This document shows, piece by piece, positions 5,421 to 58,465 of a stretch of 64,000 nt of DNA. The stretch comes from Acidobacteriaceae bacterium dw_441 (lineage in GTDB: Bacteria; Acidobacteriota; Terriglobia; Terriglobales; Acidobacteriaceae). The translations under genes were made by a program, and so were the position numbers. The notes beneath the pieces were generated by a model. The model saw only the letters and a program-made list of their open reading frames with translations. It was not told where the DNA came from and ran no database searches. The DNA lies in NCBI GenBank assembly GCA_018449715.1, contig JAAVVA010000001.1, positions 310,001 to 374,000 on the forward strand, written 5' to 3'. Position 1 is the stretch's first letter. Each line of letters begins with the position of its first letter.

Positions 5421-5493
5421 AGTTCATGATAACGGGTGGAATGAGGGGAAGAGTTTTCCGCGAACGAGCCGCCGATTGAGTAGAATCAAAAGG

Positions 5494-40161: not shown

Positions 40162-40185
40162 GACTCTTATCAGGATGGAGGCTTT

Positions 40186-41778
40186 GTGTCAGCTATCGCA
40201 CTGAAGATTATTGTTGGTGGAGAAGAACTTCAAGCGAGTTCAAGCGACCGACATGGCACTGTAAGCAGGGTCGAAGTGATCAAGGAACTCAATCGTCATT
40301 CATTGTGCGAGATCGAGTTCAATCAAGTCGCCGGCAATCGCCCTCCGATTGAGAAATGGATCGGGCGCTCGATTACCCTTTTGTCCACAGCATCTGGGAG
40401 CAAACTTTTCGCCGGCTTTGTTCTGGATGTAAAGCTGCTATACCAGACCGCTGGTAGCTTTTCGGTTGTGATCAAAGGCGTGAGTGTGAGTTACAAGCTC
40501 GATCTTGCTGCGAGATATCGGTACTATGGTCCGCTTTCCGTGTCTGATGTGGCGCAGCAGATGGCAGGAGATGGAGGCGTTAGCATCACTGCGAAAGCAG
40601 GTGGAGGCAAGTCCTCATTGGACCTGGTGCAGTGGGGGGAGACGGACTGGCATTATCTATGTAGGCTCTGCGACGATTTTGGCGTCTACCTTGTAGCTAC
40701 CGATGACGGCCTTAGCGTTGAGGATGGATTTTCCGAAACCGGTCCAGATCTGGAGTGGCGCAGCGATCAGGATAGTGGTCTTGTCGAGTTTTCGGTGGGT
40801 GGATCACTTGGCGAACCATCAATGGATGGTTGTCATTATGATTTTTCGACATCGAAAAGCCAGGCTTTTCAACAGGTTTCGCAAGCTCCTGTGCTCAGCG
40901 GTGCCGTCGATAGTTTTACCAGCGCTGTGAAGCAGCAAGCCAAATCAGTTCTTAAGCCTGGTTATAAGTCGTGGCGCAATCGGGCGAAGTCGATCGATGA
41001 TTATCAAGCATCTTTGCAGCAGGAGTCAGAGTGGGCAGTGGGAAGCCGCCTGGTTTGTGGAGGAGTCAGTCGCTGCGAAGCATTATCCCCGGGACAAAGC
41101 GTGCAGGTAAAAGGCGTCATCGACGCTGAAGGAAAGTACAACATTGCGCGTGTGATGCATCTCTGGGGACCTGAAGGTTATACAAATCAGTTCAATTGTT
41201 CCCCTTGGAATAAGTATCGGTCGCGCCCACATCCTGTGCGCCCAAATGTTGCAGGCGTCCACTCGGCACGGGTAGCTAATATCGATGATCCTCAGCGGCA
41301 AGGTCAGGTACAGGTTCAGTATTACTGGCAGGAGCAGGGACAGACGACATGGATTCGTCACCTGACTCCGTACGCAGGGGCAGATCGCGGACTATTCTTC
41401 CGTCCAGAAGTCGGGGATGAGGTACTGGTCGCTTTTGAAGAGGGCGATCCTGAACGTCCTGTAATTCTGGGGTCGGCATGGAATATGTCGGATGCGATTC
41501 CAAACGAAGATTTCTGGGGCGGAGAGACTCACAATAACGATGTAAAGCGGATCGTCACCAAGAGTGGCCATCGTATTTCGCTTATCGATACGCAAGGGGA
41601 GGAATCGATTGGAATAGCGACGCCGATCCATGCGAAGTTAGTGTTGCACGAAAAGGCCGCGGAGACGGGGAGGCCAGCGATTGTAATGAATGTGGACGAC
41701 GGAGACCTGATTTTCAATGCTCCGAACGGACGTATTCATTTCCATGCTAAGTATTGGTCACGAGAGGTTGGAGAGTAA
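40186..41778 (+). CDS. vgrG: VgrG/TssI spike protein
   Basis: 530 residues, starting at GTG 40186 behind GGAGG. The N-terminal half is gp27-like (LKIIVGGEELQASSSDRHGTVSRVEV..., LFAGFVLDVKLL) and forms the hub. The following gp5 OB-fold is clear: GVHSARVANIDDPQRQGQVQV, then GLFFRPEVGDEVLVAFEEGDPERPVILGS, the standard VgrG motif. It trimerises on the Hcp tube and pierces the target. The usual long beta-helix needle is short here, ending soon after NAPNGRIHFHAK. The next gene encodes a separate protein made largely of such repeats, so the needle may be split into two polypeptides. No effector domain is fused to this C-terminus. Confidence 0.93.
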   Translation: MSAIALKIIVGGEELQASSSDRHGTVSRVEVIKELNRHSLCEIEFNQVAGNRPPIEKWIGRSITLLSTASGSKLFAGFVLDVKLLYQTAGSFSVVIKGVSVSYKLDLAARYRYYGPLSVSDVAQQMAGDGGVSITAKAGGGKSSLDLVQWGETDWHYLCRLCDDFGVYLVATDDGLSVEDGFSETGPDLEWRSDQDSGLVEFSVGGSLGEPSMDGCHYDFSTSKSQAFQQVSQAPVLSGAVDSFTSAVKQQAKSVLKPGYKSWRNRAKSIDDYQASLQQESEWAVGSRLVCGGVSRCEALSPGQSVQVKGVIDAEGKYNIARVMHLWGPEGYTNQFNCSPWNKYRSRPHPVRPNVAGVHSARVANIDDPQRQGQVQVQYYWQEQGQTTWIRHLTPYAGADRGLFFRPEVGDEVLVAFEEGDPERPVILGSAWNMSDAIPNEDFWGGETHNNDVKRIVTKSGHRISLIDTQGEESIGIATPIHAKLVLHEKAAETGRPAIVMNVDDGDLIFNAPNGRIHFHAKYWSREVGE

Positions 41779-41790
41779 TAAGGAGAAGTT

Positions 41791-42981
41791 ATGGCGGTTT
41801 TTGATGGGAGCGTAAAGACACAACGCAGGGTTGCCGATCCCTTGACGGACAAGCAGGTCAGTTTGCTTGCCGCGCTTACATTGCCGTCTATTAATACTCC
41901 GGCGGCATTAGTGTATCCCGGTACGGATGTTTCGATTGTGCATGGTAATCAGCAGTTGCACGTCGATCAGAATCGTATGATGAAGGTCGATATGAACCAG
42001 GATGTCACGATCGGGATGAACGAAATCTATCTGGTGGATATGAACCGTACTATGACTGTTCTTGGGAATTACACCAGGACGGTCATGATGAACTCCCTGA
42101 TCGACGTGACCGGGAATTATACGAAAAACATAATAAGTAATTACATGAAAAATGTGACAGGTAACTCGACCAATGTAATTACTGGGTTTTATTCAAAATC
42201 AGTGACGATGGACTACATCAAAACGATCAGCGGAGACTCGACGAATGTCATTACCGGAATTTACAGCAAGAGTGTTAAGTCAAATTATTTGAAGCATGTC
42301 GATGGAATTTCCAAGAACACTGTTATAGGCGACTACACTAAACTGCTAAGTTCAAACTATGTGAAAGTGGTGACTGGAAACTCAAACGTACAGGTGACGA
42401 GCGAATCCGTCGTACAGTATGTAGGAAATCATAGCCGGACTTTCGGTAACGATCACAAGATGTACATCAGCGGTAAGAATACACATACGACTGTTGGTCC
42501 TACGATTCGTACCGAGATCGATGTGGCGGTAACGCAGCAGATCGATAACCATGCGGATGCACACCCTTCGAATCTTAATCAAGACAAGAACGAGTGGTTC
42601 TCTATGGCAAATATGAAGGGGAGCTGGCAGAGAATTTTGAAGCTGGATTACACCACTGGTCCTGCGCTTTCAGGCGCAATCTTGAAGATGGATGCGAATG
42701 TTCTTAACTACGGACTAAGTGGAAGCCACAATACATTCTTTGTAGAAAAGTTTGACTGTGGCGGGTTTAAGAATGAAATTCTTGCAACAAAAACTAAAAT
42801 AGAAGGGCTTAGCCAGAGAATTGGCGGTCTTTCTGTGGCAGCGTATGGAGCTTCAAGCAAAGCCTGCGGTGCAACCATGCGCGCAGGTGGGGCTGCCGTG
42901 AAATTTCTTGGGGGCGTTTTCCAGGCCATCCCAGGCAAGGTCCAGGCGGGAGTCACCTGGGCTATCAACCAGTTCATGTAG
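41791..42981 (+). CDS. Stand-alone triple-beta-helix needle/effector candidate
   Basis: 396 residues. Residues 53-236 parse as 23 consecutive octads (for example NYTKNIIS, NYMKNVTG, NSTNVITG, DYIKTISG, DSTNVITG), the eight-residue period of phage T4 gp5 and VgrG needle beta-helices, with Asn first and Val/Ile plus Gly near the end. A globular segment follows (about 237-330). Last comes an Ala/Gly-rich amphipathic or hydrophobic region (GATMRAGGAAVKFLGGVFQAI...), which could insert in membranes. AAGGAG precedes ATG 41791. Just after vgrG, it is best read as a needle extension carrying a C-terminal effector or tip domain. It has no PAAR motif. The effector role is inferred. Confidence 0.72.
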   Translation: MAVFDGSVKTQRRVADPLTDKQVSLLAALTLPSINTPAALVYPGTDVSIVHGNQQLHVDQNRMMKVDMNQDVTIGMNEIYLVDMNRTMTVLGNYTRTVMMNSLIDVTGNYTKNIISNYMKNVTGNSTNVITGFYSKSVTMDYIKTISGDSTNVITGIYSKSVKSNYLKHVDGISKNTVIGDYTKLLSSNYVKVVTGNSNVQVTSESVVQYVGNHSRTFGNDHKMYISGKNTHTTVGPTIRTEIDVAVTQQIDNHADAHPSNLNQDKNEWFSMANMKGSWQRILKLDYTTGPALSGAILKMDANVLNYGLSGSHNTFFVEKFDCGGFKNEILATKTKIEGLSQRIGGLSVAAYGASSKACGATMRAGGAAVKFLGGVFQAIPGKVQAGVTWAINQFM

Positions 42982-42992
42982 AGATAGGCCCG

Positions 42993-43985
42993 ATGCTGAA
43001 AAATGAAGATGTACTCAGAGTCGATTCCAAAGCACTGTTGCCCTGGCGTTGGGCTGAATCGATGCGTAGTTGTTCACTGTTCTGGATTCCTGTGAACTTC
43101 AAACCGATTCCTCGTGGTCAACGGGAATGGTTATTGGAGTTTTTTACCAGACTATCCACTCGTTTGTCAGAGACAAGTGGGCTGCAGCCAGAGCATTTTA
43201 TGCAGATGCAGATTGTTGATGAAAATGAACAATTGCGTAAATCATTTATGGACGCGATGCTGAAGGAATCGCCCATGCTCGGACGTTGCTGGTTGCCGCG
43301 AGGTAAAGCGCCTACCGCGGTATCTGATGAGGAAGTAGAGTTGCTTGCCAGTAAGAAGAAGGCGTTTCATGCCTATGACTATGCCCCAGCACAAGCATGG
43401 TGGTTTCTGAGTAGAGATACGGATGTGCTGCGTGAGCGATATCTGGGGTACGGTGGGCTCACGGCATTTTTCCTGAAACCTAGCGCTGAAGAAAAGTTGA
43501 CGGTTGTGCCACCCGTAGCTAGCACAAAGATGATTATCCCGAAATTTCTTCGCAAGGAGCCAGGATTAAAAGTTGTACTCGAAGATTTCAATCCGCAAAA
43601 ACCGAACCAGATTCCTGGCTTTGTCAGAAATCATCCTGCAATGAAACAGGTTTTTTCAATATTCGATGTCGATAAAGTGCAGGAAAAAAATAGAACACTG
43701 ATGTCACCTTTTCGTGATCAGACGAAGGAGATATTCGGGGTTGGAATTTCGCATGATTTGGAATATGAAGGAATACTTTTTGTGCTTCCAAAGCTTGCTT
43801 CAGAGGATTTCTTTTCTCGCACAGATCAGGAGATTCGCCACTGGTTTGAGGTCTTTGACGTTTATATCAATGAGAGCCCTGAAGATGAGGGAATCATCAT
43901 GGCATGCAAGGACAACCTGAGACCTTTGGTTGCATCGATCGTTGAAGAGATGCGTAACAAAGGGTATCGCTACTGGGAGGGTTGA
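42993..43985 (+). CDS. Unknown protein with ESPED motif (paralog 1)
   Basis: 330 residues, not recognised, soluble, no signal peptide. It starts at ATG 42993, 11 bases after the needle gene. The N-terminal half has LFWIPVNFKPIPRGQREWLLEFF. The C-terminus reads VFDVYINESPEDEGIIMACKD and shares the YI-x-ESPED-x-GI motif and overall end structure with the next gene product, so the two are distant paralogs. Position after a presumed effector suggests immunity or adaptor proteins. There is no direct functional evidence. Confidence 0.7.
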   Translation: MLKNEDVLRVDSKALLPWRWAESMRSCSLFWIPVNFKPIPRGQREWLLEFFTRLSTRLSETSGLQPEHFMQMQIVDENEQLRKSFMDAMLKESPMLGRCWLPRGKAPTAVSDEEVELLASKKKAFHAYDYAPAQAWWFLSRDTDVLRERYLGYGGLTAFFLKPSAEEKLTVVPPVASTKMIIPKFLRKEPGLKVVLEDFNPQKPNQIPGFVRNHPAMKQVFSIFDVDKVQEKNRTLMSPFRDQTKEIFGVGISHDLEYEGILFVLPKLASEDFFSRTDQEIRHWFEVFDVYINESPEDEGIIMACKDNLRPLVASIVEEMRNKGYRYWEG

Positions 43986-43988
43986 GTC

Positions 43989-44780
43989 TTGGTCGTCAGG
44001 CAATCACAAGAACGAGCAAAGATGACAGAAGATCTACGCGTTTACCTTCCTGTTAAGGAGTTGCGTTTCGAAGGGAAGAGCAGCGGGTTTGAATGCTATT
44101 TCATCCCTGCACCGACTGGTCTGAGACCGGACTCGTATGACCCGGCACGCAGATTTCTTCAGGATTTGGTGGCGTATTTCACGGTTCGGATAGGGTGTGG
44201 CCACGAAAGTTTTATTCATATCGGTCAAACGCGAGAGGAGACAAGCATCCGCCTCTTTGCAGACAATGCGCGCAAATGGATTCCAGAGACGGGATTAGGA
44301 GTGTGGCCACATCATCCGGCACCGCGTATGTGGAAGATGGAGGATATGGAAGAGATCGACACGGATTCAGTGGTGCAGCCCTTGCTCCATTCTGTATTCC
44401 GCGTAACAGGCGATGCGAACGCACGTCTGGATGCGATGACAACGATGATTGGTACCGGCTTTGGATTGCAGCTTATCAGCCGTGTCGAAAGTGCCGTTTT
44501 ACTTCGCGACCTGAGCGATTTGTTCCTCAGTTTTATTCAGGATCGGGTTTTTCGCATTTTTCCCTGGTATGTTCCTCTTTTTGAAAAGACAGTCCTCACG
44601 GAACCAATGGAATCACTTGCCTCTGATGCAATGCGCGGAATTACACTTTACATTCGCGAGAGCCCGGAAGATGGTGGCATCCTGATTGTGTCGGCTGAGC
44701 CCCTCATAGAGGTTTTTGCGCAAATGGGCTACAAGCAGGTTGAAAATGGACCTGCACTCCAATGGAAGTTAGGTGACTGA
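43989..44780 (+). CDS. Unknown protein with ESPED motif (paralog 2)
   Basis: 263 residues, soluble, not recognised. TTG 43989 is preceded by GGGAGG at eight bases. ATG 44022 is the alternative, with a weaker site. The C-terminal ITLYIRESPEDGGILIVSAE matches the motif of the preceding protein, though the rest is dissimilar. It overlaps nothing and follows its paralog by three bases, so the pair is translationally linked. Like its neighbour, it could be an immunity protein, a loading adaptor or a chaperone for the needle protein. Confidence 0.68.
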   Translation: MVVRQSQERAKMTEDLRVYLPVKELRFEGKSSGFECYFIPAPTGLRPDSYDPARRFLQDLVAYFTVRIGCGHESFIHIGQTREETSIRLFADNARKWIPETGLGVWPHHPAPRMWKMEDMEEIDTDSVVQPLLHSVFRVTGDANARLDAMTTMIGTGFGLQLISRVESAVLLRDLSDLFLSFIQDRVFRIFPWYVPLFEKTVLTEPMESLASDAMRGITLYIRESPEDGGILIVSAEPLIEVFAQMGYKQVENGPALQWKLGD

Positions 44781-44784
44781 GTAG

Positions 44785-45288
44785 ATGCCTGCATATGTTA
44801 CAGATCTTTACGTTGCTTCACAGACAGCACGAGAGCTTGTTGTTGTCGATCCGTCGAACAAAGGCTTCGGCATCAGCTGCATGATTGCAGGATTACTTTT
44901 CCTGGTGATCGGTTTTGGCACCTTGTCCTATATGCGGATTGCTTTAATGCGCCCTGTACATTTCATGTTGTGGCTTATTCCAATCGTGGCTGGAGCGCCA
45001 TTTGTTGTTATAGGACTGGTTTCGATGGTGAATACGAGGATCGTACTCTCGGCAGATGCGGGTGCATTGAGTGTACAAAAGACACTCCTGTCCATGCCGG
45101 TGAAGACGGCGGAATACCCTCTCGAACAGGTGCGCCTCGTCAAAGTAGGAGTGGGAGACGTTTGTCGCTTTCTTTATGTGAGCCTTGGTGACAGACCAGC
45201 CAAAAACCTGACAGGCTGTACAGATCGAACCGGATATAGCGAAGTCGCTGATGCCATGAATGCATTTCTGAATGCGAATCGTCGATAG
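44785..45288 (+). CDS. Small two-helix membrane protein
   Basis: 167 residues. Two adjacent membrane segments (ISCMIAGLLFLVIGFGTLSY and MLWLIPIVAGAPFVVIGLVSM) are followed by a short beta-rich cytoplasmic domain (TRIVLSADAGALSVQKTLL...YPLEQVRLVKVGVGD) that could be a PH-like fold. ATG 44785, four bases after the previous stop. It is the last plus-strand gene before the opposing operon, whose last gene ends only four bases beyond its stop. Not recognised. Its membrane location makes it a candidate part of the secretion apparatus. Confidence 0.65.
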   Translation: MPAYVTDLYVASQTARELVVVDPSNKGFGISCMIAGLLFLVIGFGTLSYMRIALMRPVHFMLWLIPIVAGAPFVVIGLVSMVNTRIVLSADAGALSVQKTLLSMPVKTAEYPLEQVRLVKVGVGDVCRFLYVSLGDRPAKNLTGCTDRTGYSEVADAMNAFLNANRR

Positions 45289-45292
45289 CGGT

Positions 45293-46033
45293 TTAATCTC
45301 CAGATGCGAGACGGAAAGCCAACTCTTGCGGTAACTGCCGCTCCAGAATCTTCTCCTGAACGGTACGAATGTCATAGGTTACGCGGCAGAATTCGACGAT
45401 TCGCATGGTCGAATCATAGATGCAATATGCGGCGCGGGGATCGCCGTCGCGTGGTTGCCCTACAGCGCCAGGGTTGAGAAGGTAAGTCCGTTCCGGGACG
45501 ATGGACATCTGGTTGGGAAGGACATTCAGGCGCGATACTTCGAAGTGTCTCCGGTAGGGTTCTCCAATGAAACCTCCCTGTACGTGTGTATGACCAAAAA
45601 AAGTCAGTTGTTCTGTCACATATCTCAAACCTGTTTCCGCCTCGTGTTCGTGGAACATGTAGCGGTCCTCGTCGTCGGGCGCTCCGTGCACGAGATCAAA
45701 ATCTTCTACCAGGACAGGGCCACGAGCAAGATTGAGTAACCATTGCAGATGATCCTCATGCAACTCTTCTCTCGTCCAACGGGAAGAACATTGTGCGACC
45801 GAATTGAAGGACTCGGAGGTGGCGACTCCCGAGCAGGCTTTGTCGTGGTTCCCACGAATAACAACGTCAGCATGTGTACGGATCCAGGAGACTACCTCGT
45901 TTGGATTCGGTCCATAGCCCACAATGTCACCGAGACAGAGAACCGCATGATAACGCCGGGTAGCGGCATCATGCAGGACAGCGCTCAGCGCTTCCCAGTT
46001 GGCGTGAATGTCACTCAGTATCAGAAAACGCAA
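45293..46033 (-). CDS. Calcineurin-like metallophosphoesterase of the ubiquitin-like operon
   Basis: About 246 residues, cytoplasmic. All motifs are intact: FLILSDIHANWEAL, CLGDIVGYGPNP, IRGNHD, and GHTHVQGGF. It belongs to the small Metallophos_2-like group, whose members hydrolyse phosphodiesters, nucleotides or phosphoproteins. The start is placed at TTG 46033, giving the family N-terminus, with AGAGAG upstream. TTG 46063 is the longer alternative. It is the last gene of the E1-RING-Ubl-E2 operon, overlapping the E2-like gene end by 23 bases, so translation is coupled. With no JAB peptidase or PP2C present, it might reverse the kinase's phosphorylation or act on a conjugation intermediate. 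Both are speculation. Confidence 0.82.
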   Translation of the reverse strand: MRFLILSDIHANWEALSAVLHDAATRRYHAVLCLGDIVGYGPNPNEVVSWIRTHADVVIRGNHDKACSGVATSESFNSVAQCSSRWTREELHEDHLQWLLNLARGPVLVEDFDLVHGAPDDEDRYMFHEHEAETGLRYVTEQLTFFGHTHVQGGFIGEPYRRHFEVSRLNVLPNQMSIVPERTYLLNPGAVGQPRDGDPRAAYCIYDSTMRIVEFCRVTYDIRTVQEKILERQLPQELAFRLASGD

Positions 46034-46559
46034 AGCTGCTCTCTTGTGGCGTGTAATTCTCAAACTCGGATGAAAGTCTTTGCCTGCTGCTTCGGTGTTG
46101 CAGGAGCGGAAGGCAACTTATGGGGAGAGTCAATGGCTGTATAGATAGGGAACTACATTCTTCTTGCTGCATACGATGTGCTGGGGCTCGGTTTGCAATC
46201 TGCCAGGACATGATGGCACGTGTAATGAGAATGGCATCAACGATCGTATGCTTCATATGGTAATCCTGCCAGAGGCAGACGAACCCTGTTACCGGGTCGA
46301 CGTTGATGTGTGAGACAGGGCGGGCGAAATAGGCTTCTAAAGGAAGAGTGGGGTAATAACGAGGGTATACATAACGAAGTTCATGCTCTGACTCGATATG
46401 CCGTGTACTGTCTTTTTCAATCCATGCAGGCGACTTCCGCAATGCGACACGAAATTCATCCGTGGATCGAGTGATAGCAGCGAAGACGGTTTGGTTTGCG
46501 CTTGCTAGTGCTTCAAGAAGCTGCCACTCTGCTTCCATTCGCCGATTGCGAAGATTCAT
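46011..46559 (-). CDS. E2-like (UBC-fold) conjugating protein
   Basis: 182 residues. The UBC core is readable: an N-terminal helix (RRMEAEWQLLEALA), a strand pair (EFRVALRKSP), YVYPRYYPTLPLEAYFARP as the P-x-x-Y-P-x-x-P-like turn, then HIN (His84, Asn86) and GFVCLW with the candidate catalytic Cys95, as in the HPN...CL signature of eukaryotic and bacterial E2s. The helix HTIVDAILITRAIMSW closes the fold. The last 50 residues are unlike E2 and end in a polar tail. ATG 46559 follows AAGG, nine bases after the Ubl stop. It should accept the activated Ubl from the E1-like protein by a thioester on Cys95. Confidence 0.82.
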   Translation of the reverse strand: MNLRNRRMEAEWQLLEALASANQTVFAAITRSTDEFRVALRKSPAWIEKDSTRHIESEHELRYVYPRYYPTLPLEAYFARPVSHINVDPVTGFVCLWQDYHMKHTIVDAILITRAIMSWQIANRAPAHRMQQEECSSLSIQPLTLPISCLPLLQHRSSRQRLSSEFENYTPQESSFAFSDTE

Positions 46560-46568
46560 CGGAAGACC

Positions 46569-46829
46569 TTAACCATTCAATACGATCGTTGATACGCGAA
46601 GGATATCGTTGGGACGAACACCTTGTTCTGGAAGAGGGGCTGAAAAATCGAGAGATTGGCCGTTCCAAACAACCTGCGGTTGTCCTTCACCCTTCAGATA
46701 ATCTCCTCGCTCTCGCAACTCGAAGAGAATTTCATCGAGAGTTATATCGAGAGTTTCCTGCTCATCGATATCGACATTGAATTTTTGTTCAGCACGGACA
46801 GTATCGAAGAGCATTTGATACTTGGGCAT
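46569..46829 (-). CDS. Ubiquitin-like beta-grasp protein (YukD/EsaB-like)
   Basis: 86 residues. The order of elements fits a beta-grasp fold: strand EQKFNVDID, strand LDIT, helix LDEILFELRERGDYL, strand PQVVWNGQSLDF, then the turn LPEQGVRPNDILRV typical of YukD-like ubiquitin folds, and a final strand. It ends ...VLNG, with Gly86 exposed at the C-terminus and stop directly after. It would therefore need no processing protease, consistent with the absence of a JAB gene. A strong AAGGAG precedes ATG 46829. It lies between the RING-like and E2-like genes. It is the presumed modifier of this system. Confidence 0.82.
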   Translation of the reverse strand: MPKYQMLFDTVRAEQKFNVDIDEQETLDITLDEILFELRERGDYLKGEGQPQVVWNGQSLDFSAPLPEQGVRPNDILRVSTIVLNG

Positions 46830-46861
46830 TTTGATTCTCCTTATTCTCGACGAGAGACATA

Positions 46862-47584
46862 TTACTTGTACTTTTCCGGACTGGCGCCAGCCTCTATAAA
46901 CTCACTTACTTCGGTGGGCAGACCTGGGATGTTCCATCCACAGCGACTGCATTGGCCATTATTGTCATCCCAGCATGAACGGCATTGACTATGTCCGCAG
47001 TCTCTGCAAGCCCATTGTGCCTCATTCCAGTCTGCGGTACGAAGGCATAGAGCACATCGGCCTCCACGTGTCTGAGAGCCAAAGCGTTCCTGCCACCACG
47101 AAAAATTGGATGGTAGCAGAGATACTTGGTTCGCCTCGCAGAGGGAGCATCTGCCACGTTCAAACTGCCAACAATTTTCGCATGCAATCAGGTGGCATCG
47201 TGGGCATGCAAATGAGAGGAGTCCGCGCAGCCTGGCATGACATATCTGACATCTTGCTCCACGCAGACTAACTCGAAGGGCGATTATTCCAGAGGGAAGA
47301 ACGGAAAAAACAAGAGCAAACCACGTGGCTGGCGTGTAATTGATTTCCGCGCCGACAAGTCCTAAGCCAAGACCTAGCAGACTGGCTACAACTGCGACAA
47401 AGGGGGGAAGATATATCTGTGTTATCTCAAGTGCAAGCACATATGTGCCGGCCAGTATGATTATGCCGCAAAGGAAACCTCCAGCCAGATCTCCGATGAG
47501 GCCCCAATGTGTAGCGATGAGTTGTGCTGCCGCAGCCAGGATGCCAAGCGCTGCAAGAAGAAGATTGGTCCGCAACTGCGTCAT
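46862..47584 (-). CDS. Membrane-anchored tandem C4C4 RING-like protein (E3 candidate)
   Basis: 240 residues. Four membrane helices (about 5-25, 28-52, 57-79, 86-108) are followed by a cytoplasmic tail with two Cys8 modules. Module 1 is C112/115, C127/130, C135/138, C146/149. Module 2 is C177/180, C193/196, C201/204, C212/215. Spacings are nearly identical (x2-x11/12-x2-x4-x2-x7-x2). The second has CGHSQCRSCW...GQCSRC, strikingly like the C4C4 RING of Not4. Eight Cys in this order make a cross-brace RING probable. It begins with an ATGA overlap to the E1-like gene. It would bring the E2-Ubl thioester to the inner membrane. Confidence 0.8.
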   Translation of the reverse strand: MTQLRTNLLLAALGILAAAAQLIATHWGLIGDLAGGFLCGIIILAGTYVLALEITQIYLPPFVAVVASLLGLGLGLVGAEINYTPATWFALVFSVLPSGIIALRVSLRGARCQICHARLRGLLSFACPRCHLIACENCWQFERGRCSLCEANQVSLLPSNFSWWQERFGSQTRGGRCALCLRTADWNEAQWACRDCGHSQCRSCWDDNNGQCSRCGWNIPGLPTEVSEFIEAGASPEKYK

Positions 47585-48468
47585 AAAGTACTCACGATCA
47601 TCTCATCGCGCACACTGGAGCGAACTGCTAGCTCATTGCTACCACATGAAGGGCATACGGCCCACCGTCGAACCCAGGAGATACGCCGATCAGGAGAAAA
47701 TTGTCTACCGCACGATCTGCATTCTGCAAGCGTGCAGATCGGAAAGATGATGTCAGACCTCTCAATGTGAAGTGGGCACTCCGTGCTGCAAGGGTGATAA
47801 ATGGTTTGTGAGATTGATGCTTGATCAAGATCGAGATGAGTAGAAAAAGCTTCCTTTTTCTGAATGCTTGAAAGAGCTGTTTCTATCTGCAATCCAGCAA
47901 CAATGGAAGACATGGTTGGTGTGCTTGTCCATACAGATTGGGAATGTGGTTCAGGAACCCAGCAAGCGTGTACCTTTGATTCCCACGTACTGAATAGCTC
48001 AGCGCGGCGTCTATTGGTAAGCAAACATGCGAAGCAGGCCGCAGTGTCTGCGCCTGGAAACCAGGATACGCGTCCTAAACGCGTACTCGTACCGCCTAAT
48101 CCCCCGTCGCAGACTGATAATTTATATTGCGTGGAAAGCGCGGCTATCTCCATTCGTGCCAGATCTGTGTCCACGCAACTGAAGAGTACTTCGGCGCTTG
48201 AAAATTTTTCAGATGGAATGTCCGCTATTTCCAGCGGCATTCCGGCCCACCGGGTTTGAGGGAACAGGGACCGAAGCTGATCGAGAGCATGGGAAACCTT
48301 GTTCTCACCCGCGGAGCCTGACCTGAACAGTAAAGAGCGTGTGATGTTTTTTTCTTCAAGGATGTCAGGATCTGCGATAAACACTGACTTGCAACCTAGA
48401 AGTCCGAGGTTTTTTACTACCTCAGAGCCGAGCGCGCCTATGCCTGCAACCAGAACATGGTGAAACAC
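47581..48468 (-). CDS. E1-like ThiF/Rossmann adenylyltransferase
   Basis: 295 residues from GTG 48468, which has GGAG eight bases upstream. ATG 48582 would add 38 non-family residues without a ribosome site. The nucleotide loop GIGALG (Gly9, 11, 14), DPDILEEKNITR, the conserved Lys (GENK), and CVDTD (Asp100, 102) define the ThiF/MoeB/UBA fold. C145-x2-C148 and later C250-x2-C253/C272-x2-C275 bind zinc. Cys169 in HACWVPE, before the TPTMSSIVAGLQIETAL helix, is the candidate thioester cysteine. It should adenylate the Ubl C-terminus. It starts the minus-strand operon, divergent from the membrane-FHA gene at 48747. Confidence 0.85.
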   Translation of the reverse strand: MFHHVLVAGIGALGSEVVKNLGLLGCKSVFIADPDILEEKNITRSLLFRSGSAGENKVSHALDQLRSLFPQTRWAGMPLEIADIPSEKFSSAEVLFSCVDTDLARMEIAALSTQYKLSVCDGGLGGTSTRLGRVSWFPGADTAACFACLLTNRRRAELFSTWESKVHACWVPEPHSQSVWTSTPTMSSIVAGLQIETALSSIQKKEAFSTHLDLDQASISQTIYHPCSTECPLHIERSDIIFPICTLAECRSCGRQFSPDRRISWVRRWAVCPSCGSNELAVRSSVRDEMIVSTL

Positions 48469-48746
48469 AATGAGTTCTCCAGCAGAAATCTCTAACGGTG
48501 AAGAGGTCTGAAGCCTCCTCAGTATACAAAGTGCAACACTGTGTTGAGCCAGTAAAAATATCCAATGAATACAAAATCCCATCTAAAACATTCCAGATTT
48601 TTGGGACAAAAAGCGTAGGAATGGACACATCGCTCGTGCTCTAAATGAAGAGAATTCACAACAGACTGTGAAGTGCACTGTATCGATGTACGGAAGTATT
48701 CCGCCACGATTTTTGCTGTGCTAAGCCATGGAGTTGCAGCTTCTGC

Positions 48747-49697
48747 ATGAATATTTATCAGACACTTTATTTCATGTCGCTCGCCGGGGGAACAGCTGGC
48801 CTGCTCGCATGGGCTGCACAGGCGCTCCTTGTTTTGTTGATACCGGCAGGTTCTCCAGTGTGGCCATCTGCCGTAATAGCTGCAGCACTTCTTGGCGGTT
48901 TCATTGGTAGCTTCACCGTAGCGTTTGATGAAAAGTGGGCAGGCAATCGTGTGCAGCTGCGCTGGGTAACAGTAGGTGCTCTGATTGGCTTCGGAGCTGG
49001 ACTGCTATCTGGTGCGGTACACCTACCTTTGCGTAACGCTTTGCCTGGGGCGCTTTCGCTCGGCACAGTTCTTGGCTGGACGGTAAGTGGAGCGATGATC
49101 GGCGCGGGATTGGGAGCGCGCTGGATTTCGGTCAATCATGCTCGGCTCGCGCATGGCATGGTAGGTGGAATGTGCGGGGGATTTCTGGGAGGGTTAATCT
49201 TTGGAACTCTGAGCCAATGGCTGCCGGGCATCTCTCAGGCCGTTGCATTTGTTCTGACTGGTGCGGGCATCAGCTTCGGGATCGCATTTGCTCCGATCCT
49301 TCTTCGCGACGCTGTATTGAGGTTTGTCAATAGTGGCGATCCGCGAGCCACAAGCAAACTGGGTAAGAAAGAGTGGGCTATTCAAGAAGGAGATAGCTAT
49401 GTTATCGGTAGCCAGAGCGCAGATTTATCTAAAACGACTTATGGACGGGAAGTGGATATCTATCTTCCTGATGGAACGGTAGCGCCTCATCATGCACGTA
49501 TTTATGGCAAAGATGGACGGTTTTATGTAACTCGTCATCCTGAACTTATGTCGGAAGCAGCATTGCGTCGCTTTGTGCTCAAGGTACAGAACCGTTCCGT
49601 TACTATGCCATTCGAGTTGCAGGATCAGATGTTGATCGTTGTCGGTCGCACGACCCTGATGTTTGTAGCAAAGCAGAAAGCGGGACGAACGCGATGA
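48747..49697 (+). CDS. Multi-helix membrane protein with FHA-like C-terminus
   Basis: 316 residues. Residues about 1-190 hold six or more Gly-rich hydrophobic helices (TAGLLAWAAQALLVLLIPAG, VTVGALIGFGAGLLSG, MVGGMCGGFLGGLIFGTL). The soluble tail (about 205-310) looks like a degenerate FHA domain: EGDSYVIGSQSADLS, then GTVAPHHARIYGKDGRFYV, and a final IVVGRTTLMF. It reads phosphothreonine if functional, but several canonical residues (SxxH, GTxxNG) are altered. ATGA overlap with the VWA gene indicates tight coupling. Since TssL/TssM are absent, it is a candidate membrane anchor. E1 and this gene diverge across 164-280 bases. Confidence 0.72.
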   Translation: MNIYQTLYFMSLAGGTAGLLAWAAQALLVLLIPAGSPVWPSAVIAAALLGGFIGSFTVAFDEKWAGNRVQLRWVTVGALIGFGAGLLSGAVHLPLRNALPGALSLGTVLGWTVSGAMIGAGLGARWISVNHARLAHGMVGGMCGGFLGGLIFGTLSQWLPGISQAVAFVLTGAGISFGIAFAPILLRDAVLRFVNSGDPRATSKLGKKEWAIQEGDSYVIGSQSADLSKTTYGREVDIYLPDGTVAPHHARIYGKDGRFYVTRHPELMSEAALRRFVLKVQNRSVTMPFELQDQMLIVVGRTTLMFVAKQKAGRTR

Positions 49698-51154
49698 TGA
49701 AAATCGTTTCCCGCATTGCAGGAATTGCTCTCGCCATCATGGGGGGGGCGTATGTGTCGGTGTATGCGCAGCAGCAGGTCGCGCTCGATTTTCTGGCCAA
49801 GCCTGCGTTGGTTGAGTGTGAGCCCGAGGGGGCCGAGCCCTGTTTTCGTCTGCAATTTGGATTTGTAGATGCCACAGGAAATGCGGTCAATGTCCCTCTT
49901 CCACCGCCGAATGCGTTGACATCTCATGTAGAGGTTCAGATCGATGGGGAGGCCGGTCAACCATTTTATGCAGTAGCAACTGCTGGATCTAGGGTTGCGG
50001 CAAGCCGCCCGCAGACTACACTCCTACTTTTCGACATTAGTGGCAGCATGTTGGCCTCTGACCTCGCAGGCCAGTCGCGCTTCGAGGCAGCTAAAGGAGC
50101 GGCCGCAGAGTACTTGAGAAATTTTTCCGATGGCCAGGATCGTGTGGCCATTGTCCCCTTTGCCAGCCGCAATGTCGAAAATACGATAGCAGCCGCACAC
50201 TTTGTAACTACGCGTACCGAGGCCCAAGCGGAACTAAACGCGTTGCCGCAGCCTGAGTCTCACAACAATACAGCCTTGTATTCTGCGGTCTATGATGCAG
50301 TTGAGACTCTACGGCAGCAACAACATTCAGGCGAGGAGAGACCACGCCTGATTCTGCTAACTGATGGGACAAACGACGTACACCCACAGAGCGGAGACGA
50401 TTCGGGGCTTCTTGCGGGGGCGAACGGACTGGCTACCGCTGCGGCGGCTGTACAGCAGTCCGGTGTTGATGTTCTGCCCATCGGCCTCGGTGATAGGCAA
50501 TCGATCGATGAAGTAGCGATGACGCGGCTGGGAACACGTCCTCCACTGATCACCTTCGACCTCGATGCATTGCACAAAGCTTTTCAACTAAAACAGATGT
50601 CGCAGGATGGAAGCCTGACTGTTATGGTGCAGGCGCCAGAGAGTCTTGCGTCGCGGACGCTTCTCGCCGGTCGAGTTGTTCGCTTCAGAGCGAAGGTTAC
50701 GCTCTTGGATGGCACGGTGCTTGTAGAGAATCGTCAGGCATTATGGGTGGCGCCACCGGTAGCCACACCGTCTTTTGAAGGCGAGGCAACGGATGCGGAG
50801 CAGCGCGCTTTTCTTTCAAGTGCTCGCCTCGATCATGGGACACTCTGGCTCTTTCTCCGTCCCTTCTTCGTCTTTGCAGGATTGGCTGGGGTTCTAGCTA
50901 TTTTGTGGTTTGGGCTGCCAAGGCTATTGTGGCCGGAGCTATATGACAATCGCTCAGCACGTCCAGTGCGCCCAGAGTATTGGCCTGGAGCGGAACCAAT
51001 GACACGTCGCGACAACCAATTTCCTGCTCGACAGGTACCGCCGGGCTTTGAAACTGCGGGCCGCGGGGAGCGGATGCCTGTTCGTGCTCCTGCTGACCAT
51101 ACGATTGTTCAGCCGGTTGCAGGATTCGATCCAACAAAAACACGATTGAGCTAA
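49694..51154 (+). CDS. Exported VWA-domain protein with C-terminal membrane helix
   Basis: 486 residues. A signal peptide (VSRIAGIALAIMGGAYVSVYAQ) is followed by an N-terminal strand-rich region and a von Willebrand A domain with its metal site (FDISGSM, later LTDGTND). A membrane helix near 390-410 (LFLRPFFVFAGLAGVLAILWF) and a Pro/Arg-rich cytoplasmic tail follow. The VWA domain faces the periplasm, where such domains mediate protein-protein contacts. It overlaps the preceding membrane-FHA gene by ATGA and is 13 bases before tssB. This suggests a structural or regulatory role in the envelope part of the T6SS. VWA proteins are not among the 13 core T6SS components. Confidence 0.8.
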   Translation: MMKIVSRIAGIALAIMGGAYVSVYAQQQVALDFLAKPALVECEPEGAEPCFRLQFGFVDATGNAVNVPLPPPNALTSHVEVQIDGEAGQPFYAVATAGSRVAASRPQTTLLLFDISGSMLASDLAGQSRFEAAKGAAAEYLRNFSDGQDRVAIVPFASRNVENTIAAAHFVTTRTEAQAELNALPQPESHNNTALYSAVYDAVETLRQQQHSGEERPRLILLTDGTNDVHPQSGDDSGLLAGANGLATAAAAVQQSGVDVLPIGLGDRQSIDEVAMTRLGTRPPLITFDLDALHKAFQLKQMSQDGSLTVMVQAPESLASRTLLAGRVVRFRAKVTLLDGTVLVENRQALWVAPPVATPSFEGEATDAEQRAFLSSARLDHGTLWLFLRPFFVFAGLAGVLAILWFGLPRLLWPELYDNRSARPVRPEYWPGAEPMTRRDNQFPARQVPPGFETAGRGERMPVRAPADHTIVQPVAGFDPTKTRLS

Positions 51155-51167
51155 TGGAAGGAGTGCT

Positions 51168-51668
51168 ATGCCGATTATTGAGGTGAAACGTCAGGGAGTA
51201 CGACCTGCGGTACGTAAGGTCCCCACGAGCACATGTGCGGTAACGATGCCTATGACGCTGGATCAGGTAGGACGGGAGACTCGCTCAGACAGCGAAGAAC
51301 CGGAGATGGTGGAGTCGGTGCAACATGCCTTCGAGAGATTCAACCCGCAGATGAAGTTTAGAGGAACGGCTGGTGAAGAGGAGACGGAGTTTCAGGCGGA
51401 ACTGCGCTTTCGTAGCATCAAAGACTTCGAACCTGCCAATATCATGACCCGTCAGGAAGTGCAGGCGGAAGATGGCACGGTGTCCTACCTGCGAAACGAC
51501 CTCGCCGATCTAAAAAACAATATCGACTTAATGTATCGCCTCAAGGATCGCTGGAAGCTGCCTGCCGTGCGCCGTGCGTGGGCTAATCCAGAGCAGCGCA
51601 AACAGATTATCGCTGCTTTGGCACAGCTACGGGATGAACTTGACAAAGTTGTGGAAGGAGAAAAGTAA
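51168..51668 (+). CDS. tssB: TssB contractile sheath small subunit
   Basis: 166 residues. The C-terminal part LRFRSIKDFEPANIMTRQEVQ followed by LRNDLADLKNNIDLMYRLK and the end helix matches TssB (VipA). The N-terminal 60 residues are longer and more charged than usual. GGAAGGAG precedes ATG 51168. With TssC, encoded directly downstream, it forms the contractile sheath. The gene starts the conserved core T6SS block. Confidence 0.9.
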   Translation: MPIIEVKRQGVRPAVRKVPTSTCAVTMPMTLDQVGRETRSDSEEPEMVESVQHAFERFNPQMKFRGTAGEEETEFQAELRFRSIKDFEPANIMTRQEVQAEDGTVSYLRNDLADLKNNIDLMYRLKDRWKLPAVRRAWANPEQRKQIIAALAQLRDELDKVVEGEK

Positions 51669-53012
51669 ATGGAGACGCTCACGAAATCTACCAGTGAAAT
51701 TCTGGGGGACGCACCGGCACGCGATGTTTTACTGGAGATTTTCGCCGATCTGCATCCTGGCCTGATCGATGAAAACCGCTCGATCACCTCCATTTTTACG
51801 CCTCAGAGCGCGCGAGAATTCCTATCTCAACTTTCTGATGTTACTTCGCTGCTCAAGGAAGAAGATAGCTTTGAAGAGACTCTGGCAAAGCTACAGACTC
51901 AGATCAACCAAGCAGAAATAATGCGAGATGAATTGCTGGAGCAGGTCTTTTTGCAGATAAGACCTATTGAGCGTAGCTATCGCGAATTGCAGACTTTTTT
52001 TGACAATACGAAAATCTATGACGGCAAGCAGCGGAAGCCGATCGAACTATTTATCTGGAATACAGATCCGCGTGAGATGAAGAATGTGTATAGCATGACA
52101 GTCGCTGCGGTAGAAAATTTCTGCAAGAAACGCAATGACAATTTCAATTTTCGTGACGATATCTGCAACCTCGTTATTCCTGGCTGGATTAACCAGCCCG
52201 TACGGGAACGTCTGGAAAGTATTGCGAACCAGTGGGGGATTCTGCTCATCACAGATATCGATGATGAGAAGTCTTTTCAAAACGTGGAACGTAACTTCCG
52301 GCCCGGCGGTAAGTATGAGTTTTTGAAACGGCCTGAGGATCGCGCTGCTGCCGATGTTGTTGTCATGGGATATTTGCAGTTACGCCCGAAGCATTGGTTT
52401 GAAAAGACGATCGACAGTGGGGATGACTTATATGGTCCTCCATCACTCGCTTTTGCTGGTGCTGTGGCGCGCACGGACGACAGCGCCGGAATGGCGCAGG
52501 GGCCAGTTGGCTCTCGTTTCGGACAGGTTACTGGACCGGAGAAAGCCAGGATTGAGCCACTCATCAGCGAGATGGAACACATCAGCATGGAGCGTCAATT
52601 GATCCCGGTTATTCGCGATGCGGATAATAAGCTCTGCTTTTTCGGATGCCGTACTCTTGCAGACGATCCTTATGGCGTATATAAATTTTTTACTTCGTAT
52701 CGCATTATTCGTTACATTGAGCGGTGCTGCAGGCATTATCTGCTGCAGGTAGCTGGTCAGGTGCTTACGCGCGAGTTTATGGACGAAGCTATTGAGAAGC
52801 CGATTGCGCGCATGTTGCAGGAGCAGGTAGAGGCTGGCACGCTTCTTGATTACAAATTGGAAATCGATCGTGATGCCAATAAGCGCATGCAGGGTATCTG
52901 TGACATCAAGTTGGAAGTCATGCCGGCTGGACCAGGGGAAACTTTCAACCTCAAGATCGATACCCCCGAGTTTGCTTCTGAAGGAGCAAAGCAAGCACAG
53001 GCAGGCCGGTAA
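51669..53012 (+). CDS. tssC: TssC contractile sheath large subunit
   Basis: 447 residues. Recognisable TssC (VipB) stretches are DELLEQVFLQIRPIERSYRELQTFF, DPREMKNVYSMTV, RTLADDPYGVYKFFTSYRIIRYIERCCRHY, and EVMPAGPGETFNLKIDTP at the end. It is shorter and more divergent than proteobacterial TssC (about 490-500 residues), lacking some N-terminal sequence. It begins one base after the tssB stop (TAA then ATG). With TssB it builds the sheath that ClpV disassembles. Confidence 0.9.
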   Translation: METLTKSTSEILGDAPARDVLLEIFADLHPGLIDENRSITSIFTPQSAREFLSQLSDVTSLLKEEDSFEETLAKLQTQINQAEIMRDELLEQVFLQIRPIERSYRELQTFFDNTKIYDGKQRKPIELFIWNTDPREMKNVYSMTVAAVENFCKKRNDNFNFRDDICNLVIPGWINQPVRERLESIANQWGILLITDIDDEKSFQNVERNFRPGGKYEFLKRPEDRAAADVVVMGYLQLRPKHWFEKTIDSGDDLYGPPSLAFAGAVARTDDSAGMAQGPVGSRFGQVTGPEKARIEPLISEMEHISMERQLIPVIRDADNKLCFFGCRTLADDPYGVYKFFTSYRIIRYIERCCRHYLLQVAGQVLTREFMDEAIEKPIARMLQEQVEAGTLLDYKLEIDRDANKRMQGICDIKLEVMPAGPGETFNLKIDTPEFASEGAKQAQAGR

Positions 53013-53143
53013 TGTTCATCTGCTGGAGATAGACGGGAGCCAGTATGTGGATCGATAGCATCCTGTGCTTTTTCCGAAGGCTGTTGCACAATCGGTCTAA
53101 AGTTCAACCGAAAACCACCATAGATGAAAAGAGGACAAATGAC

Positions 53144-53602
53144 ATGTCAAGCCCATTGCGCAGCACAGTTACTGTAGATGGAACTAAGTTTGATGCACTC
53201 GCGAGCACGGTACGTTTTGCCACATTGAAAGATCGCGCGGGGATGCCGGAGATGGGGACGCTCTCCACTGCGATCAAGGTTTATGTCGACTTTCACGATG
53301 ACACGAATCTGACTCACGGTACGCTGCAGAAACTCTTCAATCTTGCGAATGTCGTAACGCGCGACAAGATTGTGGATATGAAGATTGAGTATTGGAAGGA
53401 TGACGCGAAGAAGGATGCACTGTGCAGTTACAAGTTCAAAGGCTGGGTGAGCCGCTTCGAAACTGCAAATCCATTACCGAGTTCGACCCCGGATGGCAAC
53501 ATCGATACCAGCAGCTTTTCGACAGTGAATCACCTGCTCACACTTGAACTTGAGCCAGCGATGAACCAGCAGAATTTTAAAGACATCTCGATGGGCAATT
53601 AA
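53144..53602 (+). CDS. hcp: Hcp/TssD tube protein
   Basis: 152 residues. The sequence STVTVDGTKFDALASTVRFATL...GMPEMGTLSTAIKVYVD then DKIVDMKIEYWKDD...SYKFKGWVSRFE fits the Hcp hexamer fold, and looks more like the TssD of Bacteroidota T6SS than proteobacterial Hcp. ATG 53144 with GAGG nine bases ahead is preferred over the frame's opening ATG at 53045. It stacks inside the sheath and is expelled with VgrG. It lies between the sheath and baseplate genes. Confidence 0.8.
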   Translation: MSSPLRSTVTVDGTKFDALASTVRFATLKDRAGMPEMGTLSTAIKVYVDFHDDTNLTHGTLQKLFNLANVVTRDKIVDMKIEYWKDDAKKDALCSYKFKGWVSRFETANPLPSSTPDGNIDTSSFSTVNHLLTLELEPAMNQQNFKDISMGN

Positions 53603-53703
53603 CAAGGCAGGGAGAAGTGCTTGTCCGCGGTGTTGCTGATGCCGCGGACATAGCTCCCTCGACAGATTTAAGCGATATTCTTCCTGCTTTCAGGAGAGAT
53701 GAC

Positions 53704-54135
53704 ATGTCTCCGGTCTATTCTGCAGAAAATTCATTGTCCCGGTCCGTTGCGTTTCCGTTGCGTCTGCGACAAGGATTACTGCAGAAAACAGAGGAACGAG
53801 AGGCATATCTCGTCCTTCTGGGGATCATGGCGCGTACCCCCCAGGGTTCTTGGCCTGGGCATGCTCTATTTGGCTTTCACGAGTTTTTTTCTGAGGTTAC
53901 TAAAGATAGGTTGTCTCAGGAATTGCGTACTCGCATGGCAGAGAAGATCGTTATGGAAATCAATACAGTTCTTGTGGATCTCGAACTTAAGCGTTATTCA
54001 GTTGACTCGTTGACGCTGGATCCGCTGGAGAGCGACTTGTCTTGCAATGGCCGTGCGCGATGGCCGGAGGGGCGTGGCGTAACACTGATGCTGCGAGAGA
54101 ACGGCAGCGGCCATGCTGTAGGGTATGCCCTATGA
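53704..54135 (+). CDS. tssE: TssE gp25-like baseplate protein
   Basis: 143 residues. The gp25-like core is LSRSVAFPLRLRQGLL...AYLVLLGIMARTPQGSWPGHALFGFHEFF, including a conserved Phe-rich loop, and a final strand run with LEL and LDPLE. AGGAGA precedes ATG 53704, which is better than the upstream ATG at 53617. Its last codon overlaps the TssF start (ATGA). It joins TssF, TssG, TssK in the baseplate wedge. Confidence 0.85.
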   Translation: MSPVYSAENSLSRSVAFPLRLRQGLLQKTEEREAYLVLLGIMARTPQGSWPGHALFGFHEFFSEVTKDRLSQELRTRMAEKIVMEINTVLVDLELKRYSVDSLTLDPLESDLSCNGRARWPEGRGVTLMLRENGSGHAVGYAL

Positions 54136-58452: not shown

Positions 58453-58465
58453 AAAGGGAAAACCT

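What the first reader, a model, noticed from the sequence alone, without database searches (positions are those of the whole stretch)
45293..48582. Complete E1-RING-Ubl-E2-phosphoesterase operon inserted antisense inside a T6SS locus
Five tightly packed minus-strand genes (ATGA overlap, 32, 9 and -23 base junctions) encode an E1-like ThiF enzyme, a membrane RING-like E3 candidate, a ubiquitin-like protein, an E2-like protein with catalytic Cys, and a metallophosphoesterase. They lie between two plus-strand blocks of T6SS genes, ending four bases from the convergent neighbour. Bacterial ubiquitin-like operons are known (Bil, Bub, CBASS Cap2/Cap3, and families catalogued by Aravind and colleagues). 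I know of none embedded in a T6SS cluster with a membrane-bound RING pair, so this could be a new regulatory or effector-modifying branch.
Basis: partly seen in the sequence, partly recalled or inferred. Interest (0 to 1): 0.93.

Follow-up and report, generated by a model that had tools for sequence, protein, structure and literature searches.

The report
Ubiquitin-like pathway wired into T6SS
In a likely relative of the bacterium Edaphobacter, genes matching a complete ubiquitin-like tagging pathway (activator, carrier, zinc-finger ligase and tag) sit inside the gene cluster of a type VI secretion-like injection machine, and among the sampled genomes of its family they were found only where that machine's sheath gene is also present, so the pathway likely tags proteins to control the machine.

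Summary
Five packed minus-strand genes (45293-48468) encode an E1, a hydrophobic (predicted membrane) protein with two zinc modules (the second RING-like), an 86-aa beta-grasp Ubl, an E2 and a metallophosphoesterase. Profiles support them: E1 hits UBA7 (8e-23), E2 hits E2 enzymes in PDB (1.7e-5; catalytic Cys in 24 of 24), the RING module hits RING E3s (0.003) and Pfam Prok-RING_2 (11 of 23 family members, not the window's own), the Ubl model resembles ubiquitin/SUMO, and its C-terminal Gly is kept in 120 of 120 listed homologues. It is no stray insertion: in 398 sampled genomes of the family all 19 with the Ubl also have this TssC, and 18 of 20 Ubl copies lie 4.8-6.7 kb from it. In a Bryobacteraceae relative E1 to TssC run on one strand with gaps of at most 77 bases. 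A distant branch has Ubl fused to E2 through Gly-Gly, then JAB, FHA and vWA, but no TssC was found in that genome. The phosphoesterase is not core. Best reading: a known kind (bacterial Prok-RING/E1/E2/Ubl operons) in a new role, likely post-translational control of an atypical T6SS. Conjugation and target are untested; the key prior paper (Burroughs 2011) could not be read.

The parts
47581..48468 (-). E1-like activating enzyme (ThiF fold), probable GTG start; invariant Cys207 of the 333-aa ORF (Cys169 from the GTG start), CxxC/CPxH zinc site and a C-terminal zinc ribbon
   Evidence: Pfam ThiF 4.7e-27; profile of 20 members hits UBA7 8e-23; invariant residues; start by homology
46862..47584 (-). 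Predicted E3: hydrophobic N-terminal half (predicted membrane helices) plus two binuclear zinc modules (C112-C149, C177-C215), the second RING-like
   Evidence: 16 invariant Cys in 23 sequences; AF2 pLDDT 90; hydropathy; RING E3 profile hits; Prok-RING_2 in 11 of 23 members, not this one; VIA alignments to FYVE and RING
46569..46829 (-). Ubiquitin-like protein, 86 aa, ends in Asn-Gly
   Evidence: 120 of 120 listed homologues end NG; AF2 pLDDT 89.7, beta-grasp; Foldseek rows ubiquitin, NEDD8, SUMO
46011..46559 (-). E2-like conjugating enzyme, catalytic Cys95, His84-Ile-Asn86
   Evidence: UQ_con matches 24 of 24 members, window's own only at 0.0036; PDB profile hits are E2 enzymes; Cys in 24 of 24
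45293..46033 (-). Calcineurin-like metallophosphoesterase with the metal motifs DIH, GD, GNHD, GHTH; accessory, lineage-restricted
   Evidence: Pfam Metallophos_2 1.3e-16; motifs; present in 7 of 21 loci
48747..49697 (+). Hydrophobic N-terminus plus FHA domain protein, divergent from the cassette; a homologue also lies beside the cassette in G292, where no TssC was found
   Evidence: Pfam FHA 2.7e-4, above cut-off; hydropathy; G292 homologue
49694..51154 (+). von Willebrand A domain protein with a hydrophobic segment; a homologue also lies beside the cassette in G292
   Evidence: Pfam VWA_2 3.4e-12
51168..53012 (+). TssB and TssC sheath genes
   Evidence: Pfam T6SS_VipA 2.6e-6 and TssC PF17541 3.6e-23
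53045..61090 (+). Hcp, TssE, TssF, TssG, TssK and ClpV-like genes; the Hcp, TssE and TssF labels are weak (position, no firm profile hit)
   Evidence: TssG, TssK and AAA Pfam hits; sub-cut-off NCBIfam hits; Hcp faint hit to Bacteroidales TssD, E 0.59
35377..45288 (+). Left T6SS block: 1594-aa Ser/Thr kinase, VgrG, gp5-like repeat protein and three unassigned genes
   Evidence: Pfam; synteny

Best explanation
The cassette encodes proteins matching an E1, a predicted membrane-bound RING-type ligase, an 86-residue ubiquitin-like protein and an E2, travels with the neighbouring type VI secretion genes in the sampled family, and likely works as a ubiquitin-like tagging pathway that would control that secretion machine. 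Predicted steps: the E1 adenylates the Ubl C-terminal Gly86 and loads it on its invariant Cys (207 in the long ORF); the Ubl passes to Cys95 of the E2; the membrane RING protein holds E2~Ubl at the inner membrane and directs it to lysines of a T6SS baseplate, sheath or FHA/vWA membrane component. The cluster's Ser/Thr kinase, FHA proteins and phosphoesterase would gate this by phosphorylation, as the PpkA/PppA/Fha pathway does in other T6SSs. Shown by calls: the gene set, the conserved catalytic residues, the folds by profile or model, and the T6SS co-occurrence. Inferred: conjugation itself, the target, and a regulatory rather than structural effect.
For: E1: profile scores UBA7 84 bits, NEDD8 E1 80, MoeB 78, BubCD 64, Cap2 51; one invariant Cys outside the zinc sites. 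E2: UQ_con in 24 of 24 members; the 60 best PDB hits shown (of 157) carry E2-type names except PEROXIN-4 (an E2 by recall) and two chains named L3A2-1; Cys in 24 of 24, HPN in 20 of 24. RING. Ubl: beta-grasp model with ubiquitin, SUMO and NEDD8 rows; terminal NG in 120 of 120 listed; median pairwise identity 73%, against 35% for E1 and 37% for E2. Conjugation logic: in the distant G292 branch the Ubl is fused to E2, Gly-Gly lies in the junction region (residues 76-110) in 113 of 120 listed homologues, and a JAB with H-x-H...S-x-x-D follows in G292, as expected if a free Gly terminus must be released. T6SS link: 19 of 19 Ubl genomes have TssC, against 21 of 398 overall; 18 of 20 copies lie 4.8-6.7 kb apart; G574 carries two cassettes, each near its own TssC; E1 to TssC on one strand in L061 (gaps). 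Phospho-signalling: kinase-like match right after E2 in 13 of 21 loci (Pfam-confirmed in the two scanned, L058 and L061), FHA next to the cassette in the window, PP2C in G292.
Against: No conjugate has been seen; no substrate is identified. The window RING protein itself reaches no RING model (best ANCHR B-box, E 0.038), and Foldseek E-values for the RING model are weak (best single-RING row prob 0.72, E 0.86). The window E2 alone is below the UQ_con cut-off and has HIN. The Ubl profile finds nothing real among PDB sequences. No JAB or other deconjugase in the cassette; the only JAB found in the genome sits with what I read by eye as a cysteine synthase and a MoaD-like ORF. In G292 (90% complete, about 950 contigs) the cassette with FHA and vWA has no detected TssC, so FHA/vWA, not T6SS, may be the older partner. 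The T6SS is divergent: its VgrG, TssB, TssF, TssG, TssK and ClpV NCBIfam matches fall below the curated cut-offs and TssC, Hcp and TssE have none; TssM/TssL were not found. The co-occurrence statistics ignore phylogeny.
Confidence: 0.6

Rival explanations
1. The pathway modifies T6SS cargo rather than the machine: the Ubl is attached to effectors, VgrG or Hcp to hold them inactive, load them or mark them for export.
For: VgrG and unassigned genes (42993-45288) lie next to the cassette in the window clade; in the sampled family the cassette is always with the T6SS.
Against: The genes left of the cassette differ between branches: homologues of 41791-45288 were recovered near the cassette in only 1 of the 14 loci L056-L069 (L064; flanks up to 10 kb), while FHA and vWA were recovered in 19 of 21 loci and persist in G292; kinase and phosphatase neighbours fit control better.
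Confidence: 0.2
2. A Bil/Bub/CBASS-like defence or stress conjugation operon that happens to be co-inherited with the T6SS.
For: The E1 matches PADLOC E1-E2 models over its Rossmann part (best 5e-10); Bil, CBASS and putatively Bub are immune-linked in print (PMC13373217, passages).
Against: E1 and E2 are separate genes; NCBIfam equivalog cut-offs are not reached; only 3 of the 24 E2 members have any PADLOC match, one each to three different models; the linkage is to T6SS genes in every assessable locus of the free-Ubl branch, though not in G292.
Confidence: 0.1
3. The Ubl is a non-covalent assembly part, like YukD/EccD in type VII secretion, and the enzymes act elsewhere or are remnants.
For: The first and third Foldseek rows for the Ubl are ESX-5 type VII pore chains; YukD is reported as not conjugated (PMC1779556, passages).
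Against: Catalytic residues of E1 and E2 and the C-terminal Gly are invariant in the alignments; Gly-Gly plus JAB in the fused branch.
Confidence: 0.07
4. A sulfur-carrier (ThiS/MoaD-type) system rather than protein tagging.
For: The E1 family is shared with ThiF/MoeB.
Against: A dedicated E2 and a RING-like protein; no rhodanese or cysteine synthase in the cassette; the genome has a separate locus that reads by eye as cysteine synthase, JAB and MoaD-like ORFs.
Confidence: 0.02

Closest known systems
Bacterial Prok-RING_1/Prok-RING_2 operons with E1, E2, Ubl and JAB (Burroughs, Iyer and Aravind 2011; content recalled, seen only as a reference, not held when looked up)
   Same: Membrane-anchored RING-like zinc protein encoded with E1, E2 and Ubl; Prok-RING_2 matches 11 of 23 members; the G292 branch also has JAB.
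   Different: As far as I recall: here dedicated to a T6SS cluster, Ubl already ending in a free Gly, no JAB in the window branch, coupled to kinase/FHA/vWA genes. Since that paper could not be read, an earlier mention of this acidobacterial group cannot be excluded.
Caldiarchaeum subterraneum E1/E2/srfp/Ub/Rpn11 operon (PMC5654768, passages)
   Same: Minimal eukaryote-like E1-E2-RING-Ubl set; the JAMM enzyme exposes Gly-Gly from a precursor, as predicted here for the G292 fusion.
   Different: Archaeal, small RING protein, no secretion-system link in the passages; biochemically shown.
BilABCD, Bub, CBASS Cap2/Cap3 (PMC11354881 and PMC13373217, passages)
   Same: Bacterial E1/E2 action on Ubl proteins or Ubl-like targets.
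   Different: No RING protein in the layouts described in the passages seen; JAB in Bil; immune-linked; the E1 here scores higher against UBA7 than against BubCD or Cap2.
T6SS threonine-phosphorylation pathway PpkA-PppA-Fha (listing and abstract starts)
   Same: Ser/Thr kinase, FHA protein and a phosphatase-type enzyme encoded with a T6SS.
   Different: Adds a complete Ubl conjugation cassette; the window phosphatase candidate is calcineurin-like, not PP2C; TssL, a reported phospho-target in Agrobacterium (title), was not found here.
YukD/EccD of type VII secretion
   Same: A ubiquitin-fold protein tied to a secretion machine.
   Different: YukD is not conjugated, and its operons as described in the passage seen list no E1, E2 or RING (PMC1779556).

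Membership tests
Prok-RING-type bacterial E1/E2/Ubl operon | Membrane-anchored RING-like zinc protein | tested here: met
   Hydrophobic N-terminal half with helices in the model; Prok-RING_2 in 11 of 23 and Prok-RING_1 in 10 of 23 family members, though not in the window protein itself; RING PDB profile hits
Prok-RING-type bacterial E1/E2/Ubl operon | E1 with catalytic Cys and E2 with catalytic Cys encoded alongside | tested here: met
   (catalytic role by position)
Prok-RING-type bacterial E1/E2/Ubl operon | Ubl of beta-grasp fold with C-terminal Gly | tested here: met
Prok-RING-type bacterial E1/E2/Ubl operon | JAB peptidase in the operon (usual; recalled as not universal) | tested here: not met
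   Absent from the window cassette; present in the G292 branch. The one JAB found in the genome lies elsewhere
Prok-RING-type bacterial E1/E2/Ubl operon | Protein conjugation activity | not testable with these tools
   Needs biochemistry
Bil / Bub / CBASS Cap2-Cap3 | System-specific E1/E2/JAB proteins | tested here: not met
   PADLOC and NCBIfam E1 matches cover only the Rossmann part, NCBIfam far below cut-offs, e.g. NF058523 34 of 320 bits; E2 no consistent match
Type VI secretion system | Sheath, baseplate, tip and ClpV genes | tested here: met
   TssB, TssC, TssG, TssK and VgrG (Phage_base_V) above Pfam cut-offs, AAA ClpB/ClpV-like; NCBIfam matches below curated cut-offs
Type VI secretion system | TssL/TssM membrane complex | tested here: inconclusive
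   No PF06761 or PF09850 in the whole genome (E. coli control rang); other components are so divergent that a divergent TssL/M could be missed; TssJ not tested
PpkA-PppA-Fha pathway | Ser/Thr kinase and FHA protein in the T6SS cluster | tested here: met
   Kinase 35377-40161 and FHA 48747-49697
PpkA-PppA-Fha pathway | PP2C phosphatase | tested here: not met
   Among the T6SS-cluster genes scanned, the only phosphatase candidate is calcineurin-like; PP2C in the G292 locus
ThiS/MoaD sulfur carrier | Rhodanese or cysteine synthase partner | tested here: not met
   None among the cassette proteins; a cysteine synthase-like ORF lies with a separate JAB and MoaD-like ORF on contig C8, read by eye

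The most novel reading that the evidence does not exclude
A T6SS that does without the usual TssL/TssM membrane complex and instead depends on a built-in E1-E2-RING ubiquitin-like cascade, whose membrane RING ligase covalently marks baseplate or FHA/vWA membrane proteins to license assembly: ubiquitin-style conjugation as an obligate part of a bacterial injection machine.
Probability: 0.35. Interest if true: 0.93.

Novelty: new variant of a known kind. Interest (0 to 1): 0.82.

Why it matters
The bacterial ubiquitin-like conjugation systems I met in the literature passages are mostly tied to immunity. A complete E1-E2-RING-Ubl cascade that accompanies one secretion machine in every assessable genome of a family would give bacterial ubiquitin-like tagging a second, physiological job, with candidate targets in the same cluster. 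The two branches (free Gly-ended Ubl without JAB; Ubl-GlyGly-E2 fusion with JAB) also form a natural experiment on how the tag is matured, and named strains such as Edaphobacter modestus DSM 18101 and Granulicella mallensis X5P3 carry the cassette beside Tss genes, so the idea can be tested.


Full report
WHAT IS THERE. The window lies in a 4.9-Mb, 10-contig genome. Genomes given as the same genus include one (G023) whose contig length (527,297) equals that of an Edaphobacter record found independently, so the host is likely an Edaphobacter relative (Acidobacteriota). On the plus strand, left: a 1594-aa Ser/Thr kinase, VgrG, a gp5-like repeat protein and three unassigned genes. Right: FHA, vWA, TssB, TssC, Hcp-like, TssE/F-like, TssG, TssK, a ClpB/ClpV-like ATPase and a 3-keto-disaccharide hydrolase-FHA protein.

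E1. Pfam ThiF 4.7e-27. A profile of 20 members hits human UBA7 at 8e-23 (84 bits), NEDD8 E1 at 1e-21 (80), MoeB at 5e-21 (78), Citrobacter BubCD at 1e-16 (64) and Cap2 at 1e-12 (51). Invariant residues include nucleotide-site glycines, Asp71, Lys95, Asp138, the CxxC and CPxH zinc ligands, a C-terminal zinc ribbon and one further Cys (207 in the 333-aa ORF), taken as the thioester Cys (the roles are inferred from position and recall).

E2. The window protein alone scores UQ_con at only 0.0036, but all 24 family members match it (best 1.4e-8). The profile has 157 PDB sequence hits at E up to 1, best 1.7e-5; of the 60 shown all carry E2-type names except PEROXIN-4 (an E2 by recall) and two chains named L3A2-1. 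Cys95 is present in 24 of 24 and HPN in 20 of 24; the window has HIN.

UBL. A beta-grasp model (pLDDT 89.7); Foldseek's best rows are ubiquitin, NEDD8, SUMO and ESX-5 chains, with probability 1.00 but no E-value at or below 0.001. Of 120 homologues listed (356 found), 120 end in Asn-Gly and 114 are exactly 86 aa.

T6SS LINK. A scan of named genomes with two short patterns from the Ubl returned 21 loci (it finds close relatives only). TssB or TssC lies within the fetched flank in 19; the other two (L057, L060) are short or truncated contigs. RING, Ubl and E2 matches occur in 21 of 21 and E1 in 20 (L057 is cut). Among 398 sampled genomes of the family, 19 have the Ubl and 21 have TssC; the 19 are a subset of the 21 (Fisher 1.6e-30 without phylogenetic correction). 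The two TssC-only genomes have it on a 4.3-kb contig and at a contig start. Of 20 Ubl copies 18 lie 4.8-6.7 kb from TssC; two are on other contigs of fragmented assemblies. G574 holds two copies of each, paired. In 396 genomes drawn across the phylum, 6 have the Ubl and 5 have a close TssC (E below 1e-200), and those 5 are shared; the sixth Ubl genome is G292, and a sixth TssC match (G254, 23% identity) is a distant one. These sets overlap with one another and with the 21 named loci. In L061 (Bryobacteraceae) E1, RING, Ubl, E2, kinase, two DUF4384 proteins, a caspase-TPR protein, FHA, vWA, TssB and TssC are on one strand with gaps of at most 77 bases, by my own gene calls. Distances of cassette proteins correlate with TssC distances (Spearman E1 0.45, E2 0.67, RING 0.77, Ubl 0.83; TssB for comparison 0.87; not corrected for the species tree).

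ACCESSORY GENES. The phosphoesterase is found in 7 of 21 loci; a kinase-like match follows E2 in 13 of 21; L056 has neither. Pfam confirmed a kinase in the two scanned (L058, L061). In the 7 phosphoesterase loci the kinase match lies at the far end beyond VgrG. This fits phospho-control, as in the PpkA/PppA/Fha pathway (only the listing and abstract starts were seen).

SISTER BRANCH. G292, another family of the phylum, has PP2C, E1, RING, a Ubl-E2 fusion, JAB with H-x-H...S-x-x-D and a C-terminal hydrophobic segment, FHA and vWA. Gly-Gly lies in residues 76-110, the junction region, in 113 of 120 listed homologues (140 found); the seven others include sequences with Ala-Gly there and a partial one. 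No TssC was found in G292 by single sequence or profile, though the genome is fragmented. This both supports Gly-terminal conjugation chemistry and counts against the T6SS being the only partner of the module. It rests on one locus.

MECHANISM AND LIMITS. I commit to a membrane-tethered Ubl conjugation pathway that controls the T6SS, with about 0.6 confidence: conjugation chemistry most likely, dedication to the T6SS strongly suggested, regulatory effect and target inferred. No TssM or TssL was found in the genome (with E. coli ringing as a control); since NCBIfam matches of the other components are below curated cut-offs or absent, this is suggestive only.

NOVELTY. Archaeal E1/E2/RING operons are proven (PMC5654768, passages), and the same paper says some complete operons exist in bacteria; a 2014 survey reported no complete toolkit in the bacteria it examined (PMC4327156, passages). 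No paper linking such a cassette with T6SS turned up in the searches listed under Tried and rejected, but Burroughs 2011 could not be read. Hence: new variant of a known kind.

Noticed in passing
L076 (G292:C54) 5334-6194, minus: Ubl fused in frame to E2 through Gly-Gly, followed by a JAB peptidase with a C-terminal hydrophobic segment; 140 homologues of similar length found, 120 listed.
   Followed up: partly
L061 14340-16436: A caspase-fold (Peptidase_C14) TPR-PEGA protein lies between the kinase and FHA genes in the same apparent operon as the Ubl cassette and Tss genes; L059 has a gene of similar size and place.
   Followed up: no
window 48747-61090: Divergent T6SS: NCBIfam matches below cut-offs or absent, no TssL or TssM found in the genome; Hcp faintly resembles Bacteroidales TssD (E 0.59).
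   Followed up: partly
G574:C1 2280989 and 5328496: One genome carries two Ubl cassettes, each about 5 kb from its own TssC.
   Followed up: no
L062: A contig labelled Arcobacter has the layout of the Bryobacteraceae loci and close proteins; probably misbinned.
   Followed up: no
window 46011-46559 and relatives: The E2 has a basic C-terminal tail (such as RRRLS) in 22 of 24 sequences by a motif pattern, function unknown.
   Followed up: no
window 61167-63200: Protein with two 3-keto-disaccharide hydrolase stretches and a C-terminal FHA domain closes the T6SS block and is syntenic in relatives.
   Followed up: no
L121 (G000:C8) 521-2270: Separate cysteine synthase-like, JAB and MoaD-like ORFs in the same genome (JAB by Pfam; the others read by eye), resembling a known sulfur-carrier layout.
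   Followed up: partly
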